NCBI RefSeq assembly: GCF_019430945.1
Contig: NZ_JAHYCB010000001.1
Coordinates: 186,001 to 250,000 of the forward strand
Reading direction: 5' to 3'
DNA length: 64,000 bases
Origin: Neorhizobium populisoli
GTDB taxonomy: Bacteria; Pseudomonadota; Alphaproteobacteria; Rhizobiales; Rhizobiaceae
The translations under genes were made by a program, and so were the position numbers. This document shows, piece after piece, positions 48,572-58,916 of the stretch; positions within the stretch are counted from its first letter, which is position 1, and each line of letters opens with the position of its first letter. The notes beneath the pieces were generated by a model. That model worked only from the letters and a program-made list of their open reading frames with translations, was not told where the DNA came from and searched no databases.

Positions 48572-49725
48572 TGTTCACTTCCTGTGGAATGCAAGGAACG
48601 GCCGTCGGACGCCTCTTCCTTGTGCATGGGCATAAGAACGCGGAAAATGGTACGGCGCGCCTGGCTGTCGCATTCGACGATGCCGCCATGGGCACCGATG
48701 ATCTTTGCGACCAGCGCCAGGCCGAGGCCGGAACCATTGGTCTTGGTGGTGATGAAGGGATCGAAGAGATGCGGCACGAGATCGGACGGCACGCCCGGCC
48801 CGTTGTCGATGACGCAGAATTCCAGCGGCAGCGAAATCTTTTCGCGCGTGCCGGAAACCGAGAGCTTGATGCCGGGACGATAGGCCGTCGTCAGGACGAT
48901 TTCTGCATCCGGTTGATCGTGGACCGCTTCGGCCGCGTTCTTGATGAGGTTCAGGAAGACCTGCACCAGCTGGTCGCGATTGGCATAGACCGGCGGCAGC
49001 GACGGGTCGTAAAGCTCGGTGATCTTGATATTGCGGGCAAAACCGGCCCGGGCAACCGCTTTCACATGGTCGAGGACCGAATGGATGTTGATCGGCAGCC
49101 GATCGACCGGCCGTTCGTCGGAGAAGACTTCCATGCGGTCGACCAGCGAAACGATACGGTCGGTCTCGTCGCAGATCAGCTGCGTCAGCGGACGGTCGTC
49201 GTCCGGCACCACGGTTTCGAGCAACTGGGCAGCACCACGGATGCCCGACAGCGGGTTCTTGATCTCATGCGCCAGCATCGAGGCAAGACCGGTCACCGAG
49301 CGAGCGGCGGCGCGGTGGGTGAGCTGGCGGTCGATCTTGTCCGCCATCGACCGTTCCTGGAAGACGATGACGACCGAGCCCGGCTCGCTGACGACGGGCG
49401 CGACATAGAGATCGACCAGTTTGTCGGAGCCGAGACGCGGTGATGACAGGTCGACACGGTATTCGTTGACGGGCGCCTTGCGCTCCCGCACCTGATCGAT
49501 CAGCGCCAGAAGCGGGCTGCCGAAGGGAATGAAGGTCGAGATCTTGTTCTTGGCGAGATAGGCGGCGCTGGAGCCGAAAAAGGCTTCCGCCTCCCAGTTG
49601 GCGAATGCGACCTTGCCGGCGGCATCGACCAGCACGACCGGGTTCTGGACAGAGTTGAGCACGGCCATGGCGAGCGCGTTGCTGGTGGCGTCCTCGCCGT
49701 TGTTTACCCTTGGAGCCTTGCTCAT
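48568..49725 (-). CDS. ntrB: Nitrogen sensor kinase NtrB
   Basis: A 385-residue soluble histidine kinase. N-terminal PAS domain, H-box [21 protein letters not shown]-box [13 protein letters not shown]1 DNGPGVP and G2 [12 protein letters not shown] are all present. It phosphorylates NtrC under nitrogen limitation and is inhibited by PII. It sits between dusB and ntrC with 4-base overlaps on both sides, as in the rhizobial nifR3-ntrB-ntrC operon. Confidence 0.96.
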
Positions 49726-50738
49726 GCGGCGTGCCTCCTTGGAGCGAACTCGCCGGAAAGCGCGTCCGTCATCCGGCGGGACACATCCGCCGGGTCTTTC
49801 GATATCATGATGGTTGCCTTTTCATCGGTCGGCAGGTCCGGCGCATACCGGTCGAGATACCAGCCGAGTTGTTTGCGGGCGTGGCGCAAGCCGGCCTCGC
49901 GGCCATAAAGTTCCAGCATCGCCTCGTAATGTTCGACAGCGAGGCCGGGGATTTCTTCGGGTGCCGGCCCCGCATGGCCGCCAAGCCAGCCGACATGCCA
50001 GGGACGCCCCTGCGCGCCACGGCCGACCATGACGGCATCGGCGCCGGAGCGCTTCAGGATTTCGGCGGCATCTTCCGGTGTCTCGACATCGCCATTGGCG
50101 ATCAGCGGAATGGAAATGGCTTCGCGGACCGGACGGATGGCATCCCAATCCGCCTTGCCCTCGTAGAACTGCATGCGGGTGCGGCCGTGGATGGTCACCA
50201 GCTGGATACCGGCCTGTTCGGCGCGGCGGGCGATCTCCGGGGCGTTGAGGGAATCATGATCCCAGCCGAGCCGCATCTTCAGCGTCACCGGTACCTTCAC
50301 CGCATTGACGGTCGCTTCGATCATTGTCAGCGCATGATCGGGATCGCGCATCAGCGCCGAGCCGGAATAACCGCCGGTGACCTTCTTGGCCGGACAACCC
50401 ATGTTGATGTCGATGATATCGGCGCCATTGGCTTCAGCGATCTTCGCCGCCTCGGCCATGGCGCCTGCTTCACGTCCGGCGAGCTGCACCATATGCGGCG
50501 TAATGCCGGTGCCCCTCAGCCGCGCCCAGGATTCGCCGCGGTTCAGGATGAGTTCGCCGCTCGCCACCATTTCCGTGACGACGAGCCCAGCGCCATAACG
50601 CCAGGCAAGCGTGCGGAAGGGCAGATCGGTGACGCCGGACATCGGCGCGAGCACGACGCGGTTGCGGATGGCGACTGGCCCGATCTGGAATGGCGATGCA
50701 AGATCTGGGAATTGCAAATGATGATCTTTCGGGCACAT
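49722..50738 (-). CDS. dusB: tRNA-dihydrouridine synthase DusB (NifR3)
   Basis: A 338-residue flavin enzyme that reduces uridine to dihydrouridine in the tRNA D-loop. The catalytic cysteine is in [10 protein letters not shown], with the FMN/substrate segments [16 protein letters not shown] at the N-terminus and [11 protein letters not shown]. It is the first gene of dusB-ntrB-ntrC, historically called nifR3. The start at 50738 (MCPKDHHLQ) adds about 14 residues before the conserved core, and a later start is possible. Its promoter shares 165 bases with divergent ispDF. Confidence 0.94.
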
Positions 50739-50903
50739 GAGTTTGTTGCACTATTTTTATTCAGGTCTCGGGCATTTGCCAAGAGCAATTCCGGAACTGC
50801 GTTATTTTTAAGCGGGCTGCTGGAAACGGGGCTTTTCATTCTATAGTTCTCCGCCTGTCAATCGGCGAACGCGGTCGAGTTAAGCGCTAGGAACGACAAA
50901 TCC

Positions 50904-52097
50904 ATGACAATCGGTGTTGTTATCGTCGCGGCGGGCAGAGGCGAACGGGCGGGTTCGCCTGAAGAGGGTCCGAAGCAATACCGCCGAATCGGCGGCAGGC
51001 CGGTGATCGCCCGCACGCTGGAGCGGTTTTTATCCTGGCCGCGCAGCGGGCCGGTGGTGGTCGTCATCCATCCGGACGACGCGGCGCTTTATGCCGCAGC
51101 CGTAGCGGATGTAGACGGTGCCGCCGATGTCATCACCACGTTCGGCGGCGAGACGCGGCAGCGCTCCGTCTATGAGGGGCTGACGGCGCTCTCCGGCACC
51201 GGGGCCACGCATGTTATGATCCATGACGCCGCCCGCCCGTTCGTCGATCACGACATGCTGGATCGCGTGGCGGCCGCACTTGATGCCGGTCATGACGGCG
51301 TGCTGCCGGCCATGCCGGTGACCGACACGCTGAAGCGCGGCGGCTCGGACGGGCTGGTACACGAGACCGTGCCGCGCGCCGGGCTTTATGCCGCACAGAC
51401 GCCGCAGACCTTTTTGCTATCCTCGATCCGCACCGCGCATGAAAAGGCGGCGGCGCTGCGCCGCGAGGATTTCACCGACGACGCCTCGATCGCCGAATGG
51501 GCCGGATTGCCGGTCGCGCTGGTCGAAGGTTCGGTCGACAACGTCAAGCTCACCGTGAAGCGGGATATCGCCATGGCCGACGAAAAGCTCTCGCAAATGT
51601 CCTTCCCCGATGTGCGGACCGGCAACGGTTACGACGTACACCAGCTGGAGCCCGGCGATGGGGTGACGCTGTGCGGCGTATTCATTCCGCATGATTTCAA
51701 GCTTTCCGGTCATTCGGACGCGGATGTGGCGATCCATGCGCTGACGGACGCCCTGCTCGCCACCTGTGGCGCAGGTGATATCGGCGATCATTTTCCGCCA
51801 TCGGACATGCAGTGGCGCGGTGCTGCGTCAAAAATCTTCCTGGCGCATGCGGCGAAGATCGTTCGCGAGCGCGGCGGGATCATCACCAATGCGGACATTT
51901 CGCTGATCGCCGAGGCGCCGAAAGTGGCGCCGCATCGCGACGCCATGCGTCAGAACCTCGCCGAGATTCTCGGGATCACTGTCGACCGCTGCTCGGTGAA
52001 GGCGACCACCAACGAGAAGATGGGCTTTGTCGGGCGCGGCGAAGGGATTGCCGCGATCGCTACCGCTACCGTCATCTATCGCGGGAGCGTGGCATGA
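50904..52097 (+). CDS. ispDF: Bifunctional IspD-IspF enzyme
   Basis: A 397-residue fusion of two MEP-pathway enzymes of isoprenoid synthesis. The IspD cytidylyltransferase occupies about residues 1-230 ([25 protein letters not shown]), and IspF 2,4-cyclodiphosphate synthase about 235-397 ([32 protein letters not shown]). The fused form is typical of alphaproteobacteria; the intervening IspE step is encoded elsewhere. It overlaps cinA by 4 bases at its 3' end. Confidence 0.95.
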
Positions 52098-52591
52098 CGT
52101 TTTTCCCTGCCGATATCATCGAACAGACGCAGCGCATCATCACCGATTTTTCGGCACGCGGGCTGATGGTCTCGACCGCCGAATCCTGCACCGGCGGATT
52201 GATCGCCGGCGCGCTGACGGAGATTTCCGGCTCCTCCGCCGTCGTCGATCGCGGTTTCGTCACCTATACGAACGACGCAAAGATGGACATGATCGGCGTA
52301 ACCACAGCGACGCTGATCGCGCACGGTGCCGTATCGAGGGAAACGGCGCTGCAGATGGTACATGGCGCCCTGTACCGCTCGCAGGCAGCCGTAGCGGTCG
52401 CCGTGACGGGCATTGCAGGTCCCGGCGGCGGGTCGACGGACAAGCCGGTCGGTCTGGTGCATCTGGCTGCGAAAAGCCGGTCCGGGAAGATCATTCATCG
52501 TGAAATGCATTACGGCGACATCGGCCGAACGGAAGTCCGGCTCGCGACGATCAGGACCGCACTGGACATGCTGGTAGAGGCGGCTGATTAA
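52094..52591 (+). CDS. CinA-type nicotinamide-nucleotide amidohydrolase
   Basis: A 165-residue protein containing only the CinA C-terminal (PncC) domain, which deamidates nicotinamide mononucleotide to nicotinate mononucleotide. The catalytic serine region [17 protein letters not shown] and the later [17 protein letters not shown] are intact. Start and the ispDF stop overlap by 4 bases. Its stop overlaps the convergent secreted protein gene by 4 bases. Confidence 0.9.
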
Positions 52592-53415
52592 CCGGGATCG
52601 GGGCAGGCCGAGAGATCCGGCCCGAAATCGGCTCGGGTAAAACCGTCACGCTCCGTCCAGGTTTTGCCGCCCGTGGCATAGATCGTCGCCATCCACTGGT
52701 CTCCGGTTTCGCGCTGCTTTTTGGCGGCCGCCTGAAAGTCGGGTTTCGCGCGCATCTCCTCAAAACACTTCACCACCATGGGCAGGTGAGGCACGGCGCG
52801 CGTAAAATACAGCGCCTGGAAATCGGCTGTGCTGCGCGCCTCGCCCGTCTCGATGGCCGCGACTTCCGCCGCATCGGCAGCCGACAGGTCGGCATCGAGG
52901 GTCTCGATATAGACCCGCTGCCCGGCGTCGCGGTCGGGAATGCCGAACCAGTCGCCATCGACGCCATAATGACGACTGACGATATCGATGTCCTGCAGTT
53001 TGGACTGAACGACGCTGATCGTCGTGAAGGCGAACGGCTTCGTCTCCTGCGACGAGGAGAAACGGCTGGTCTGCCTGATCTGGGCGACCTTGCCGACCGG
53101 CAGCGAGACGGGGTCCGGCTCATAGGCAAATTGCACATTGATGAACATGTCGAACTGCGCCATCCGGCGCGGAAACAGTTCCCGATCGACATAGGTCACA
53201 AGGGCGGGCGATGCATCGTCTTCCGAATGAATGACAATCTTCAGGTCCGGCGAAAGCCAGTAACCGCCGGTGATCGCCTTGCCGCCCTTGTCGGAGAGAA
53301 TGACGTATGACCCGGCCTTGCGGATTTTTGAAAGATCGGCATCCGCTGCAGCCGTCATGTCACCGGAGAGCGAAAGCGCAGCCGCCGATATCATGCACAT
53401 GAGATGTCTTACCAT
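52588..53415 (-). CDS. Secreted hypothetical protein, paralog A
   Basis: An unrecognised 275-residue protein with an N-terminal signal peptide (MVRHLMCMISAAALSLSGDM, cleavage likely after TAAA), so probably periplasmic. It is clearly related to the next gene: AGSYVILSDKGGKAITGGYW, followed by SPDLKIVIHSED and DRELFP, aligns with AGDYVLFLDKNKKPVAGTYW, SPDVRAVAHAS and DREFFP. The ATG at 53415 has GGGAGG upstream, six bases away. The two genes form a tandem pair separated by 72 bases. No catalytic motif is evident. Confidence 0.75.
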   Translation of the reverse strand: MVRHLMCMISAAALSLSGDMTAAADADLSKIRKAGSYVILSDKGGKAITGGYWLSPDLKIVIHSEDDASPALVTYVDRELFPRRMAQFDMFINVQFAYEPDPVSLPVGKVAQIRQTSRFSSSQETKPFAFTTISVVQSKLQDIDIVSRHYGVDGDWFGIPDRDAGQRVYIETLDADLSAADAAEVAAIETGEARSTADFQALYFTRAVPHLPMVVKCFEEMRAKPDFQAAAKKQRETGDQWMATIYATGGKTWTERDGFTRADFGPDLSACPDPG

Positions 53416-53487
53416 GTGAACCTCCCTGCGCCCTCCCGACGATCGGAAAACTATCCGTCGGGGCGAGACGCTTCGCAAGCGTGGGCG

Positions 53488-54324
53488 CTATTTGCTCGGC
53501 GGGCACATGTCGAACATCAGGAACTCGATTGTGCGGGGCATGTCCACCCTCTCCCACCAGCCGATATCCTCGTTCAGGAAATCCCTCGCCATGACGGTGT
53601 CGACCTTCTCATGATCGCTGCGTATTGCGGCCTTGTATTCTTCCGTCTTGCGCTTCTCGCGGATGCATTGGGTCAAGCTCGGGATGACGTCCGCCATCTC
53701 GGTAAAGATCACGTGGAAGTCGCCGGCGCTATCGGCCTTGCCCACCGTAAGACTGTCGACGCGCGCGGCGAGTTCCGAGGACAGATCGATGCCGAAAGGC
53801 TGCACATAAATCCGTCGACCCCATTGTCCCGGCGGGTCCTTCACATCCGTCTCTTTGAAGTAAACCAGGCTCGTGAGATTATAGCCGTTGATCGTGGAGG
53901 CGATCTTGGCGCGGATCGTCAGCTTGAACGGCGTGTCGCGCGGTTTGACCTGATCGGCAAGCAGGCCGACCTGCCGCCGGTTTTCGACCATGTCCCGCGA
54001 CTGCCCGACATCGAGCGCGAGCGGATCGGTGGAATAGCTGTATTCGTAATTGAGGAAATAGACCGGCGCCGCGACACGCGTTGGGAAAAACTCGCGATCG
54101 ACGAAGATCAAATTGCTCGGAGAACCGCCGGGCATGGATGCATGAGCAACGGCGCGCACATCAGGTGAAACCCAATAGGTGCCGGCAACCGGCTTCTTAT
54201 TTTTGTCGAGGAACAGGACATAGTCGCCCGCCTCACCGATCTTGGCCGGTTCGGCCGATGCGGGCACGGCGCCCAGAACGCATGCGGCAAAAAACCATGC
54301 CGCCAGCCAGAGATGCCTGCTCAT
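53488..54324 (-). CDS. Secreted hypothetical protein, paralog B
   Basis: A 278-residue protein with a clear signal peptide (LWLAAWFFAACVLGAVPASAE). It is homologous along most of its length to the downstream neighbour (DREFFPTRVAAPVYF, then STDPLALDVGQSRDM, and a matching RRIYVQPFGIDLSSE). Both proteins end in a C-terminal helical region with a conserved cysteine (FDMCPPSK versus DLSACPDPG). Periplasmic location is inferred. The function is unknown, and the pair is probably co-transcribed. Confidence 0.75.
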   Translation of the reverse strand: MSRHLWLAAWFFAACVLGAVPASAEPAKIGEAGDYVLFLDKNKKPVAGTYWVSPDVRAVAHASMPGGSPSNLIFVDREFFPTRVAAPVYFLNYEYSYSTDPLALDVGQSRDMVENRRQVGLLADQVKPRDTPFKLTIRAKIASTINGYNLTSLVYFKETDVKDPPGQWGRRIYVQPFGIDLSSELAARVDSLTVGKADSAGDFHVIFTEMADVIPSLTQCIREKRKTEEYKAAIRSDHEKVDTVMARDFLNEDIGWWERVDMPRTIEFLMFDMCPPSK

Positions 54325-54385
54325 GCCGATCTCTCCCGTTCGGCAGGACTATCCTCCAGAACGGCCTTGGCGGCAAGGGTTGGGC

Positions 54386-54841
54386 TCAGGCGTAGATCTT
54401 GTCGGCCCGTTTCTCGAAAGCGTCGGTGAACATGCGGAAGGCGCGGTCGAACATCGAGCCCATCAGCGCGCCGAGGATCATGCTCTTGAATTCGTAGTCG
54501 ATGAAGAAATGCACCACGCAGGCATCCGGCGATCCATCGGCCGCCGGCTCGAAACGCCAGCGGTTTTCGAGGTATTTGAACGGGCCCTCGATATATTTCA
54601 CATCGATCGCCTGTTCTGCCGGATTGAGCAGGACCTGGGTGGTGAAGGTCTCGCGGATCGCCTTGTAACCCACGGTCATATCGGCCATCAGCAGCGCCTT
54701 GCCGTCGCGCTCCTTGCGGGAACGGATGCTCAACGCTTCGCAGAGCGGCAGGAATTGCGGATATTTCTCGATGTCGGCAACCAGCGCGTACATCTGTTCG
54801 GCGCTGTGCTTGACGGGGCGGCGGATTTCGAACTTGGGCAT
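54386..54841 (-). CDS. Coq10/RatA-like START-fold protein
   Basis: A 151-residue SRPBCC (START-like) protein of the polyketide-cyclase/Coq10 group. VKHSAEQMYALVADIEKYPQ and the IEGPFKYLENRWRFEP strands are the hallmark. Homologues bind ubiquinone-like lipids or, as RatA, inhibit 70S ribosome association; it is often annotated as ubiquinone-binding. It is located near lipA and the pdh genes in rhizobia. The assignment of a physiological role is uncertain. Confidence 0.85.
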   Translation of the reverse strand: MPKFEIRRPVKHSAEQMYALVADIEKYPQFLPLCEALSIRSRKERDGKALLMADMTVGYKAIRETFTTQVLLNPAEQAIDVKYIEGPFKYLENRWRFEPAADGSPDACVVHFFIDYEFKSMILGALMGSMFDRAFRMFTDAFEKRADKIYA

Positions 54842-54872
54842 GTTCCGCAGTTAAGCGCCGATGCCGCGAAGA

Positions 54873-55421
54873 TCAAGCCCCGAGAAGGGTCAAGAGGTGG
54901 CGCATTTCGCCGCGCGATTTGATGACGAGAACCGGGGTGTGCCTGGCATGGATTTCGAGACCTGACACTACGCGTGGTCCATAGACCTTCTCCCAGGTCC
55001 AGACGAATCGCAGGAAATCCAGATCGATCTTTTCCGGGCAACCGGGCGCCATCTCCGGACGGGTATCGCCCCTGTGTTTCAGCCAACGCCCGACGACACC
55101 CCAGATGCAAAGCCAGCGCGGCATCCTGACCCAGAGGACAATATCGCTGCGCGGCACGCGAATATCGAAAGTCGAGGTGTTGGTGCCGTCCATGATCCAA
55201 CGCTCGCCGGCCGTCAGGATGCGGGTAAGCTCCAGTTGCTCCGCCTTGGGCCGCAGCACCCAGCCCGGAAGCCAGATGACGTCACGGTCGAGAGAAATAT
55301 GGTCGAGGCCGAAACGGCTTGCGATTCGTCGCGACAGCGTCGACTTGCCGCCGCCGGAACAGCCGATGACGAGGATCCGATCTGCCTGCCGCACCTTGTC
55401 GGCAGCCTCCTCTACCCTCAT
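54873..55421 (-). CDS. P-loop kinase-like protein
   Basis: A 182-residue protein with Walker A GCSGGGKST near residue 20 and a mononucleotide-kinase-like layout (DVIWLPGWVLRP, DGTNTSTFDIRVPRSD). It resembles adenylate-kinase-like proteins called DNA topology modulation proteins, whose function is not established. The ATG at 55421 has AGGTGA six bases upstream; one at 55457 would add 12 residues. It lies upstream of the Coq10-like gene on the same strand. Confidence 0.72.
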   Translation of the reverse strand: MRVEEAADKVRQADRILVIGCSGGGKSTLSRRIASRFGLDHISLDRDVIWLPGWVLRPKAEQLELTRILTAGERWIMDGTNTSTFDIRVPRSDIVLWVRMPRWLCIWGVVGRWLKHRGDTRPEMAPGCPEKIDLDFLRFVWTWEKVYGPRVVSGLEIHARHTPVLVIKSRGEMRHLLTLLGA

Positions 55422-55750
55422 GTAATTCACCTGGCCGTCGCCGGATCCGGTGTTCATCTTCGTTTCCCCGACTTCAAAGGTTCCCACGATCGTGAACGCC
55501 ACTATCTACAACCGATGACAGGAGGATTTCATTCTCGCGCAGAGGGTATTATAGAAGACCGATAATGTTATGCCGCATTGCGGCCGACGACTCGCAAAGC
55601 CGCTGGCCGTTTGTCGATGTTGGATAGCATTCGAGATTAATAAAATTTAATGTTGGATTCATGTGGTTGTAATGATCCATGCACGCAATCGCGCGTATAA
55701 GGGACTCAATTCAACCACCAGCAGACCGGTCTCACCGGAAAGAAGCATCG
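55422..55750. other. Intergenic region before a small protein gene
   Basis: About 330 bases without a gene. The part around 55610-55680 is AT-rich and probably holds the promoter of the small plus-strand gene. An imperfect palindrome GGATTCAT..ATGATCC lies at about 55655-55678. No terminator or repeat family member is obvious. Confidence 0.4.
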
Positions 55751-55936
55751 ATGGACGACTTTGCACAGATGATCAAGCTGCTCGAATCTGCAAGGCAGCT
55801 TGCCGATATGAACCAGCTCCCCATGCTTGCCTATCTCATTGAAATGGCAAAGGGAGAAGCGCGCGGACACCGCTTCACGCTGCGGGAAAGACGGCGCGGC
55901 CAGGACAAGCCCGAGAAGGTCCAGGCGGCGGAATAA
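55751..55936 (+). CDS. Small conserved hypothetical protein
   Basis: A 61-residue helical protein (MDDFAQMIKLLESARQLADM, then MLAYLIEMAKGEARG), ending in a basic tail. Similar short proteins occur in other rhizobia as conserved hypotheticals. GGAAAGAAG lies just before the ATG. A longer frame from 55679 is unlikely because the leader has no similarity. It converges on lipA. Confidence 0.65.
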   Translation: MDDFAQMIKLLESARQLADMNQLPMLAYLIEMAKGEARGHRFTLRERRRGQDKPEKVQAAE

Positions 55937-55959
55937 GGATTTGGGATAAGGGCTGCCGC

Positions 55960-56934
55960 TTATTCGGCGGCAGCCAGCAGCTTCTTTTCGCGATTGGCCT
56001 TGAGGCGCGCGAAATCGTCGCCGGCATGATGCGACGAACGGGTCAGCGGGCTCGACGACACCATCAGGAACCCCTTGGTATAAGCGACCGTCTCGTAGGA
56101 CTTGAACTCCTCCGGGGTGACGAAGGCTTCCACCTTATGGTGCTTCTTTGTCGGCTGCAGATACTGGCCGATGGTCAGGAAGTCGACATCGGCGGTGCGC
56201 AGGTCGTCCATCAGCTGCAGGACTTCATTCCGCTCTTCGCCAAGGCCGACCATGATGCCGGACTTGGTGAACATGGTCGGATCGAGTTCCTTCACCCGCT
56301 GCAGCAGGCGGATGGAGTGGAAATAGCGTGCGCCGGGACGAACCGTCAGGTAATTGCCGGGAACGGTTTCCATATTGTGGTTGAAGACGTCCGGCTTGGC
56401 GGCGACAACACGTTCCAGCGCACCGGGCTTCTTCAGGAAGTCCGGCGTCAGGATTTCGATCGTCGTATTCGGCGAAGCGGCGCGGATCGCCCAGATCACC
56501 TTTTCGAAATGTTCTGCGCCGCCGTCCTCGAGGTCGTCACGGTCGACGGAAGTGATGACGACGTGTTCGAGACCCATCTGCTTGACGGCCTTGGCGACGT
56601 TTTCCGGTTCGGCCATATCGAGCGCATTCGGCTTGCCGGTCGCGACATTGCAGAAGGCGCAGGCGCGGGTACAGATCTCGCCCATGATCATGAAGGTGGC
56701 GTGTTTCTTGTCCCAGCACTCGCCGATATTGGGGCAGCCCGCTTCCTCGCAGACCGTTACCAGCTTGTGTTCCTTCACGATCGACCGGGTTTCCTGATAA
56801 CCCTTGGAAACCGGCGCACGCACGCGGATCCATTCCGGCTTGCGCATCACTTCCTGGTCGGGGCGATGCGCCTTTTCCGGATGGCGGACGCGCTTTTCAT
56901 CCGAGAGCACCGTCCTGTCGAGAATGTTGACCAT
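55960..56934 (-). CDS. lipA: Lipoyl synthase LipA
   Basis: A 324-residue radical SAM enzyme that inserts two sulfur atoms into octanoyl chains to make lipoyl groups for PdhC, PdhB and other lipoyl proteins. Its auxiliary cluster cysteines are in [12 protein letters not shown] and the radical SAM cluster in [10 protein letters not shown]-terminal RSSHH motif is present. A TTG immediately upstream at 56937 is not needed. It lies downstream of the pdh genes and lpd, whose products need lipoylation. Confidence 0.96.
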
Positions 56935-56973
56935 CAAAAACCTGCCTTCAACCGCGAATCCCGCGGGATTTCG

Positions 56974-57219
56974 TCAACGCCTGACGAGTTTGGCGACGAA
57001 TAGCAAAATGCACGAGCCGATGAAACCCGTCACCAGGTAACCCAGCCATCCGCTGGCGACATAGATGCCGGCGCGGGAGAAGATCGCATTGGCAAGAACC
57101 GCGCCGACGATGCCGATCACGATATTCATGAAAATGCCGAAGCGGATATCCATCAGCTTGCCGGCCAGCCAGCCCGCGAGGCCGCCAATGATGATTGCTG
57201 CAATCCAACCCACGCCCAT
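56974..57219 (-). CDS. GlsB/YeaQ/YmgE family stress membrane protein
   Basis: An 81-residue transglycosylase-associated-type membrane protein with three hydrophobic helices (IAAIIIGGLAGWLAGKLM, NIVIGIVGAVLANAIF, LVTGFIGSCILLFVAKLV). Family members are linked to general stress responses; molecular function is unknown. It lies between lipA and lpd on the same strand, separated from lpd by a repeat element. Confidence 0.9.
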   Translation of the reverse strand: MGVGWIAAIIIGGLAGWLAGKLMDIRFGIFMNIVIGIVGAVLANAIFSRAGIYVASGWLGYLVTGFIGSCILLFVAKLVRR

Positions 57220-57288
57220 GTGATACCCCGTTTAAAATCTCTGCGAATGATATGGGCGGTCGCCCAGGCAATCGCAATATGTCGAGAT

Positions 57289-57426
57289 GCCCCTCATCCG
57301 GCTGCCGCCACCTTCTCCCCGTCTGACGGGGAGAAGGGATATGCCGCGCCGTTTACCAAACTCTTGAACGTCAGGTTGGGCACGTTCCCTCTCCCCGCCT
57401 GCGGGGAGAGGGTTAGAGTGAGGGGC
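57289..57426. repeat. Composite palindromic repeat
   Basis: Outer arms GCCCCTCA (57289-57296) and TGAGGGGC (57419-57426) enclose two hairpins. TTCTCCCCGT (57313-57322) pairs with 57326-57335. CCCTCTCCCCGC (57387-57398) pairs perfectly with 57401-57412 through a 2-base loop. It is a typical mosaic element between lpd and the stress membrane protein gene. Confidence 0.75.
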
Positions 57427-57470
57427 AAAGCTCCACACGCAATGCCAACCCACTAAAAGCAGACTTCAGA

Positions 57471-58916
57471 TCAAGCGTTCAGCACACGCCCATAGGCATC
57501 CAGCACGCTTTCCTTCATCGTTTCCGAAATGGTCGGATGCGGGAAGATGGTGTGCATCAGGTCTTCCTCGGTCGTCTCCAGGTTCATGGCGACGACGAAG
57601 CCCTGGATGAGTTCGGTAACTTCGGCACCGACCATATGGGCGCCCAAGAGTTCGCCGGTCTTCTTGTCGAAGATGGTCTTGACCATGCCCTGGTCTTCGC
57701 CGAGCGCCACGGCCTTGCCGTTGGCCGCAAAGGAAAAACGGCCGACGCGGATGTCGCGACCCTGTTCCTTGGCTTTCGCTTCCGTCAGGCCGACCGAAGC
57801 GACCTGCGGGTTGCAATAGGTGCAGCCCGGAATCTTCAGCTTGTCCATCGGGTGGACGTTCGGCAGGCCGGCGATCTTCTCGACGCAGATGACCGCCTCA
57901 TGCTCGGCCTTGTGAGCGAGCAGCGGCGGGCCGGCGACGTCGCCGATCGCGTAGATACCGGGTACGTTGGTCTTGCCGTAACCGTCGATCACGATGAAAC
58001 CGCGATCGGTCTTCACGCCGACGGCTTCGAGGCCGATGCCTTCGACATTCGCCTGCACGCCAACGGCCGAGATCATCCGGTCGGCGGTGATGGTTTCCTT
58101 CGAGCCGTCCTTCTTTTCGATCGTCGCGGTCACCGAATTGGCGCCCTTCTCGACCTTGGCGACCTTGGCTTCGAGCAGGATCTTCATGCCCTGCTTGTCG
58201 AACTGCTTCTTGGCGAAGGCGGAGATTTCCGCGTCCTCGACCGGCATGACCTGCGTCATGATCTCGACGACGGTCACATCGACACCCATGGTGCGGTAGA
58301 ATGAGGCGAATTCGATGCCGATGGCGCCGGAGCCCATGACCAGCAGAGACTTCGGCATTTCTTCCGGCTTCATCGCCTCGAAATAGGTCCAGATCAGCTT
58401 GCCGTCCGGCTCAATCCCCGGCAGCGCGCGCGGACGGGCGCCGGTGGCGACGATGATATGCTTGGCGGTGTAGGTGCCCTCGCCCAGCGTATTCTTCGGC
58501 ACGGGACCCTGCGGCTCGACAACCGGCTTGGTCGACTTGCCGACAACGATCTCACCCGGTTTGGTGATCTTGGCTTCACCCCAGATGATATCGACCTTGT
58601 TCTTCTTGAACAGGAAGCCGACGCCGTTGTTCATGCGTGCGGCAATGCCGCGCGAGCGGGCGACGATCGCCTTGATATCCGGCTTGATCGAACCTTCCAG
58701 CACGAGGCCGTAATCCTTGGCGTGCTGGGCCGAATGCATGACGTCGGCGGTGCGCAGCAGCGCCTTGGTCGGGATGCAGCCCCAGTTGGAGCAGATACCG
58801 GCCAGATGTTCGCGCTCGACGACGGCAACCTTCATGCCGAGCTGAGCCGCGCGGATGGCCGCGATATAACCGCCCGGGCCGGAACCGATAACGATGAGGT
58901 CGTAGGATTGAGCCAT
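57471..58916 (-). CDS. lpd: Dihydrolipoyl dehydrogenase
   Basis: A 481-residue E3 flavoprotein that reoxidises dihydrolipoyl groups of the pyruvate dehydrogenase complex using NAD. The FAD motif GSGPGGYIAAIRAAQLG, the redox-active CSNWGC pair (CxxxxC), and the C-terminal HPTISE histidine of the active site are intact. It lies in the same orientation as pdhA-pdhB-pdhC with two small genes and an SGNH hydrolase gene between. Confidence 0.96.
   Translation of the reverse strand: MAQSYDLIVIGSGPGGYIAAIRAAQLGMKVAVVEREHLAGICSNWGCIPTKALLRTADVMHSAQHAKDYGLVLEGSIKPDIKAIVARSRGIAARMNNGVGFLFKKNKVDIIWGEAKITKPGEIVVGKSTKPVVEPQGPVPKNTLGEGTYTAKHIIVATGARPRALPGIEPDGKLIWTYFEAMKPEEMPKSLLVMGSGAIGIEFASFYRTMGVDVTVVEIMTQVMPVEDAEISAFAKKQFDKQGMKILLEAKVAKVEKGANSVTATIEKKDGSKETITADRMISAVGVQANVEGIGLEAVGVKTDRGFIVIDGYGKTNVPGIYAIGDVAGPPLLAHKAEHEAVICVEKIAGLPNVHPMDKLKIPGCTYCNPQVASVGLTEAKAKEQGRDIRVGRFSFAANGKAVALGEDQGMVKTIFDKKTGELLGAHMVGAEVTELIQGFVVAMNLETTEEDLMHTIFPHPTISETMKESVLDAYGRVLNA

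What the first reader, a model, noticed from the sequence alone, without database searches (positions are those of the whole stretch)
52588..54324. Tandem pair of related secreted proteins without known domain
Two adjacent proteins with signal peptides share a scaffold (AG.YV....DK......G.YW.SPD....H, DRE.FP) and a late cysteine, yet are strongly diverged. A duplicated periplasmic binding or inhibitor pair would fit. They lie beside cinA in an otherwise housekeeping region.
Basis: seen in the sequence. Interest (0 to 1): 0.5.

Follow-up and report, generated by a model that had tools for sequence, protein, structure and literature searches.

The report
Swap-prone secreted protein gene pair
Two neighbouring genes make distantly related exported proteins of an undescribed family; in related soil bacteria the same spot between two core genes is empty or holds one of several very different versions, so it looks like a gene slot whose content can be exchanged, with a function still unknown.

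Summary
X1 (52588-53415, -) and X2 (53488-54324, -) look exported, share 31% identity end to end (E 6e-39) and have two conserved mature cysteines. No Pfam, NCBIfam, PHROG or PDB-sequence match identifies them. "Tandem duplicate" is only partly right. Both genes sit exactly between convergent coq10 and cinA. In 25 of the other 29 same-genus loci examined that junction is empty (stops -10 to +20 nt apart); 4 hold one X1-type gene. In Shinella 10 of 21 genomes carry one copy, of two types only 28-34% identical although the flanking proteins are 86-96% identical. X2 is about as far from X1 (32%) as from the other types (29-36%), so the pair is not a recent duplication. The models (pTM 0.78, 0.80) show a beta-rich domain and a helical tail; the top solved-structure match, GfcB/YmcC, is weak and sequence tests for that family fail. 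I infer an exported, non-enzymatic binding protein in a slot whose occupant can be replaced. Ligand unknown; an ancient pair with differential loss remains a serious rival.

The parts
52588..53415 (-). X1: exported protein, 275 aa, ATG start, SD AGGGAGG; signal peptide about residues 1-24; Neorhizobium-type member
   Evidence: relatives at 60-76% identity in four same-genus genomes
53488..54324 (-). X2: exported protein, 278 aa, ATG start, SD GGGAGAG; signal peptide about residues 1-24; a deep lineage of the family with no close relative found
54386..54841 (-). coq10/SRPBCC-like core gene on the upstream side of the slot (name recalled, no family call made on it)
   Evidence: matched in 57 of 57 genus genomes
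52592..54385 (.). the slot: 1794 nt between the coq10 and cinA stops here; -10 to +20 nt in 25 of the 29 other genus loci examined

Best explanation
The locus is a fixed chromosomal slot between the convergent core genes coq10 and cinA. It can be empty or hold a gene for a member of an undescribed family of exported two-domain proteins. SHOWN: homology, position, empty sites, several deep types in the same slot, purifying selection within types, two conserved cysteines. INFERRED: types are gained, lost and exchanged by recombination in the conserved flanks, so the window's pair is two deep types side by side rather than a fresh duplicate. INFERRED, weaker: the proteins act in the periplasm or at the envelope as non-enzymatic binders; the beta-rich domain, with its conserved segment around D(R/Q)..P..R, contacts a ligand or partner, and the C-terminal helices are stapled by a disulfide. 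The partner may differ between strains, which would favour exchange of types.
For: Junction empty in 25 of the 29 other genus loci, X1-type in 4. By genome, the window's included: 5 of 57 in the genus (one search lists 6; G199 dropped as spurious), 4 of 199 in the family draw (one search lists 5; G005 dropped), 3 of 397 in the order draw (one search lists 4; G259 dropped); 10 of 21 Shinella. Same slot in the 10 named records and the 10 Shinella loci. Shinella types A and B: X 28-34% while COQ10 is 88-96% and CinA 86-93% (21 pairs) and IspDF 90-94%. L078 (A) against L084 (B): DNA identity 83-94% through most of coq10, 37-69% over X, 74-85% in cinA; L078 against L076 (both A): 76-87% in the same part of coq10, 85-95% in X. 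dN/dS within types about 0.09-0.26. Models pTM 0.78 and 0.80.
Against: The type-B genomes form one clade on the flank tree (support 0.743), so a single switch, or differential loss of an old pair, explains Shinella; frequent exchange is not shown. In the L078-L084 profile the first 500 nt of the locus, on the far side of coq10, also fall to 40-65%, so X is not the only dissimilar stretch. On the trees X2 lies with X1 on one side of a well-supported split from type A and R. alarense (0.989; 0.997, where type B and the distant members lie on that side too). No mobile-element gene is next to the slot by inspection. GC of X1/X2 (0.606/0.590) is like the window's (0.613). Binding is inferred from fold class and lack of enzyme-family matches; no ligand or expression data. 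The conserved segment lies where the X2 model is least confident (block pLDDT 51-53), and its DR reads DQ in two of three type-B sequences. Three of five AlphaFold models in each run were poor.
Confidence: 0.45

Rival explanations
1. Ancient tandem duplication: the Rhizobiaceae ancestor had two (or more) copies in this slot, and most lineages lost one or all; the window genome kept two.
For: The types of Neorhizobium, Shinella and R. alarense share one slot, and coq10-X2-X1-cinA could be an ancestral order. Differential loss would also give types A and B in Shinella. X2 and X1 fall on the same side of a supported split.
Against: Needs loss in 52 of 57 genus genomes and in most of the 199 family genomes drawn. 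The L078-L084-L076 comparison, where coq10 and X disagree on kinship, fits exchange better.
Confidence: 0.35
2. A GfcB/YjbF-like envelope accessory protein for polysaccharide export, working with other exported proteins.
For: Both models rank GfcB/YmcC (2in5) first in Foldseek (E 8.3e-3); VIA Z 4.9 (rmsd 4.8, 123 aligned) for X2 and 4.1 (rmsd 5.5, 125 aligned) for X1.
Against: Z under 8 may mean only a common arrangement, and galectins (X2, Z up to 4.7) and a LolA (X1, Z 4.2) are tied with it. No PF11102 match listed in 10 members, hhalign probability 0.2%, no gfcC/gfcD-like neighbours by inspection.
Confidence: 0.1
3. An inhibitor or immunity protein: it blocks an incoming enzyme or toxin (lysozyme, protease, bacteriocin, phage protein), and types differ because attackers differ.
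For: Exported, patchy, deeply different types at one slot, two conserved cysteines. Such turnover is usual for immunity genes (general knowledge).
Against: No partner gene seen, no convincing PADLOC match (best E 0.049 in 1 of 10 members), and within-type selection is purifying, not diversifying.
Confidence: 0.2
4. A Lol/RseB/YceI-type carrier that binds lipid or acyl chains in a half-barrel or barrel.
For: LolA (9azz, Z 4.2), YceI (3q34, Z 3.6), RseB (3m4w, Z 3.1) and LolB (3wjv, Z 3.0) are among the weak matches of X1.
Against: Z values under 5, tied with unrelated rows; no sequence match.
Confidence: 0.1

Closest known systems
GfcB/YmcC and YjbF (PF11102), E. coli; 2in5
   Same: Exported, all-beta main domain; top but weak Foldseek match for both models. 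Passages of PMC8592465 describe the GfcB crystal structure as a homodimer of an 11-stranded beta-sandwich and report that GfcB binds GfcC.
   Different: No PF11102 match, hhalign 0.2%, an extra helical C-terminal part with two cysteines, different neighbours; GfcB is annotated a lipoprotein and this family shows no conserved lipobox.
Variable genes at fixed core-gene junctions (integration or replacement hotspots; a known kind, recalled)
   Same: Fixed flanks, variable content, empty sites.
   Different: One or two genes only, in every occupied site seen the same protein family, no mobility gene seen beside it in the window.
LolA/LolB/RseB-type periplasmic folds
   Same: Beta-rich exported proteins among the weak matches of X1.
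   Different: Z under 5; no sequence relation found.

Membership tests
GfcB/YjbF (PF11102) | match to the family profile | tested here: not met
   no PF11102 match listed at E <= 10 for 10 members; no match over the cut-off in the window's genome
GfcB/YjbF (PF11102) | profile-profile relation to E. coli GfcB and YjbF | tested here: not met
   hhalign probability 0.2%, 26 columns; the template had only two sequences, so the test is weak
GfcB/YjbF (PF11102) | same fold | tested here: inconclusive
   Z 4.9 and 4.1, rmsd 4.8 and 5.5 A
GfcB/YjbF (PF11102) | operon with gfcC/gfcD-like genes | tested here: not met
   neighbours read by inspection as ispDF, cinA, coq10, an adenylate-kinase-like gene and lipA
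Periplasmic solute-binding protein | match to a solute-binding family | tested here: not met
   no such Pfam match listed for 10 members
Periplasmic solute-binding protein | adjacent transporter genes | tested here: not met
   none among the ORFs of 49000-58000, by inspection
Lol/RseB-type carrier | half-barrel fold with lipid pocket | tested here: inconclusive
   weak matches only
Inhibitor or immunity protein | binds and neutralises a target enzyme or toxin | not testable with these tools
   needs an assay

The most novel reading that the evidence does not exclude
The coq10-cinA junction is an allele slot in Rhizobiaceae: an exported recognition or immunity protein whose deep types are exchanged between species through homologous flanks, and the window's organism stacks two types to widen its repertoire.
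Probability: 0.2. Interest if true: 0.65.

Novelty: new variant of a known kind. Interest (0 to 1): 0.42.

Why it matters
It points to an exported protein family that the Pfam, NCBIfam and PHROGs copies searched do not cover, with a natural set of empty, type A, type B, Neorhizobium-type and double sites on conserved flanks. That makes function and exchange directly testable by deleting or swapping a single gene in soil bacteria.

Tried and rejected
Rejected weak hits: G005 (L008, a helicase/HD frame that I read as Cas3-like); G199 (L018, a frame without the family scaffold; its coq10-cinA junction L044 is empty); G259 (L070, a pyruvate-dehydrogenase-like frame); PF01505 Vault at E 0.03-0.04 in one member; an SppA profile at 0.038; phrog_27832 at 0.37; a PADLOC helicase model at 0.049 in one of 10 members.

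Considered and rejected: antisense ORFs over X1/X2 as genes; a lipoprotein reading (a cysteine in the signal region of some members, not at a conserved lipobox); an RNA element (no Rfam match at gathering score in 50000-58000); mobile origin (no match in plasmids with X1; none in viral contigs with A1). The viral fold search, run with the X1 model only, gave nothing usable. PDB sequence searches: 0 matches for X2 and for profile A4. The promoter/terminator scan was at chance level. A class-wide profile search matched only the window's genome (1 of 385).

Literature: five searches listed nothing recognisable on this family, judged from listings; only passages of PMC8592465 were read. This does not prove that it is unpublished.

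Full report
What is there. On the minus strand, coq10 (54386-54841) is followed by X2 (53488-54324), X1 (52588-53415) and, convergent and overlapping X1's stop by 4 nt, cinA. The gaps coq10-X2 and X2-X1 are 61 and 72 nt. Both genes have a Shine-Dalgarno-like sequence and an N-terminal hydrophobic stretch. X1's start is corrected to ATG at 53415. The proteins are 31% identical over their length, E 6e-39. Names of neighbours are by inspection and recall.

Family. Neither protein has an identifying match in Pfam, NCBIfam or PHROGs, nor any match in PDB sequences (X2; a ten-row profile). A profile found distant relatives in two other families of the order, G432 and G407, beside other genes than coq10/cinA. 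They keep two C-terminal cysteines (14 of 14 sequences), but within their own families only the source genome matched (1 of 28; 1 of 12). The family is therefore probably old and rare.

Slot. Named carriers (10 records) are Shinella (five), Rhizobium alarense, R. terrae, Rhizobium sp. CF080, Neorhizobium galegae and N. vignae; that scan went by one short pattern, so it is not a census. All 10 have X between coq10 and cinA. Contig lengths tie several of them to G handles, which puts the window's genus with N. galegae, N. vignae and R. terrae and makes g75 Shinella. In the window's genus 5 of 57 genomes carry X (a single-sequence search with X2, lists 6; one is spurious). Of 30 coq10 loci retrieved, the closest to the window's out of 57, 25 have no X, 4 have one X1-type gene, and the window has both. 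In the empty sites the stops are -10 to +20 nt apart: 12 at -10, one at -4, 12 at +3 to +20.

Deep types. In Shinella 10 of 21 genomes match, one copy each. Seven are type A, three type B. A-B identity in X is 28-34%, against COQ10 88-96% and CinA 86-93% (21 pairs), IspDF 90-94%, and the more variable adenylate-kinase-like gene 62-86%, where values under 78% come from a 53-residue match and one genome had none. The DNA profile of one A-B pair, L078-L084, runs at 83-94% in most of coq10, 37-69% in X, 74-85% in cinA and mostly 84-93% beyond. Against this, the outer 500 nt on the other side of coq10 also fall to 40-65%. L078 shares its X type with L076 (85-95% in X) but is less like it in coq10 (76-87%) than like L084. 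I read this as recombination at or next to the slot, on one trio examined closely. The type-B genomes are one clade (support 0.743), so the minimum is a single switch in Shinella.

Place of X2. X2 is 32% identical to X1, 29-32% to the other genus members, 33-36% to Shinella and R. alarense types. On the trees X2 and the Neorhizobium type lie on one side of a supported split from type A and R. alarense (0.989); with type B and the distant members added, these join the X2/X1 side (0.997), and X2's nearest branch is unresolved (0.632; 0.918 with G432 alone in another alignment). So X2 may share older ancestry with X1, but it split before the Neorhizobium-group genomes diverged.

Selection. Within types dN is well below dS: window X1 against R. 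terrae 0.133/0.752, Shinella pairs 0.02-0.04 against 0.20-0.28. These are working genes. Composition does not mark them as foreign.

Structure. AlphaFold models of mature X2 and X1, each from 12 sequences, reach mean pLDDT 76.6 and 79.3, pTM 0.78 and 0.80; three of five models in each run were poor. About residues 10-172 are mainly strands, the rest mainly helices. The two cysteines are in the C-terminal part; a disulfide is inferred, not measured. In X2, 8 of 30 invariant columns of 12 sequences lie in residues 41-70, which hold the least confident part of that model; this may be a binding loop or an effect of a thin alignment, and type B, not among the 12, changes DR to DQ in two of three sequences. 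GfcB/YmcC is the top Foldseek hit for both, but with Z under 5, tied with galectins for X2 and a LolA for X1, and without sequence support. It is a lead for fold class, not membership.

Interpretation. Exported, without enzyme-family match, patchy, with deep types at one slot: the most economical reading is a non-essential envelope or periplasmic binder whose partner varies between strains, kept or replaced by recombination in the flanks. Position, empty sites, types and selection are shown. Exchange is supported by one detailed trio and the identity contrast. Binding is inference. An ancient pair with differential loss remains a serious rival.

Noticed in passing
L036, L038-L042, L044, L046, L054, L056, L060, L062 (coq10-cinA junction): In 12 of 25 empty sites the convergent coq10 and cinA reading frames overlap by 10 nt at their stops, so gain or loss of X happened at a very tight junction.
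   Followed up: partly
L030:2626-3201 (-): Upstream of the distant X homologue in G432 lies another exported-looking ORF of about 190 aa.
   Followed up: no
L034:1840-2199 (-): In G407 the X homologue sits next to a CpdR-like response regulator (recalled name) rather than coq10/cinA.
   Followed up: no
L081:2823-3811 and L082:2873-3809 (-): Two successive matches to the adenylate-kinase-like neighbour (window 54873-55502), suggesting that this gene is duplicated in some Shinella.
   Followed up: no
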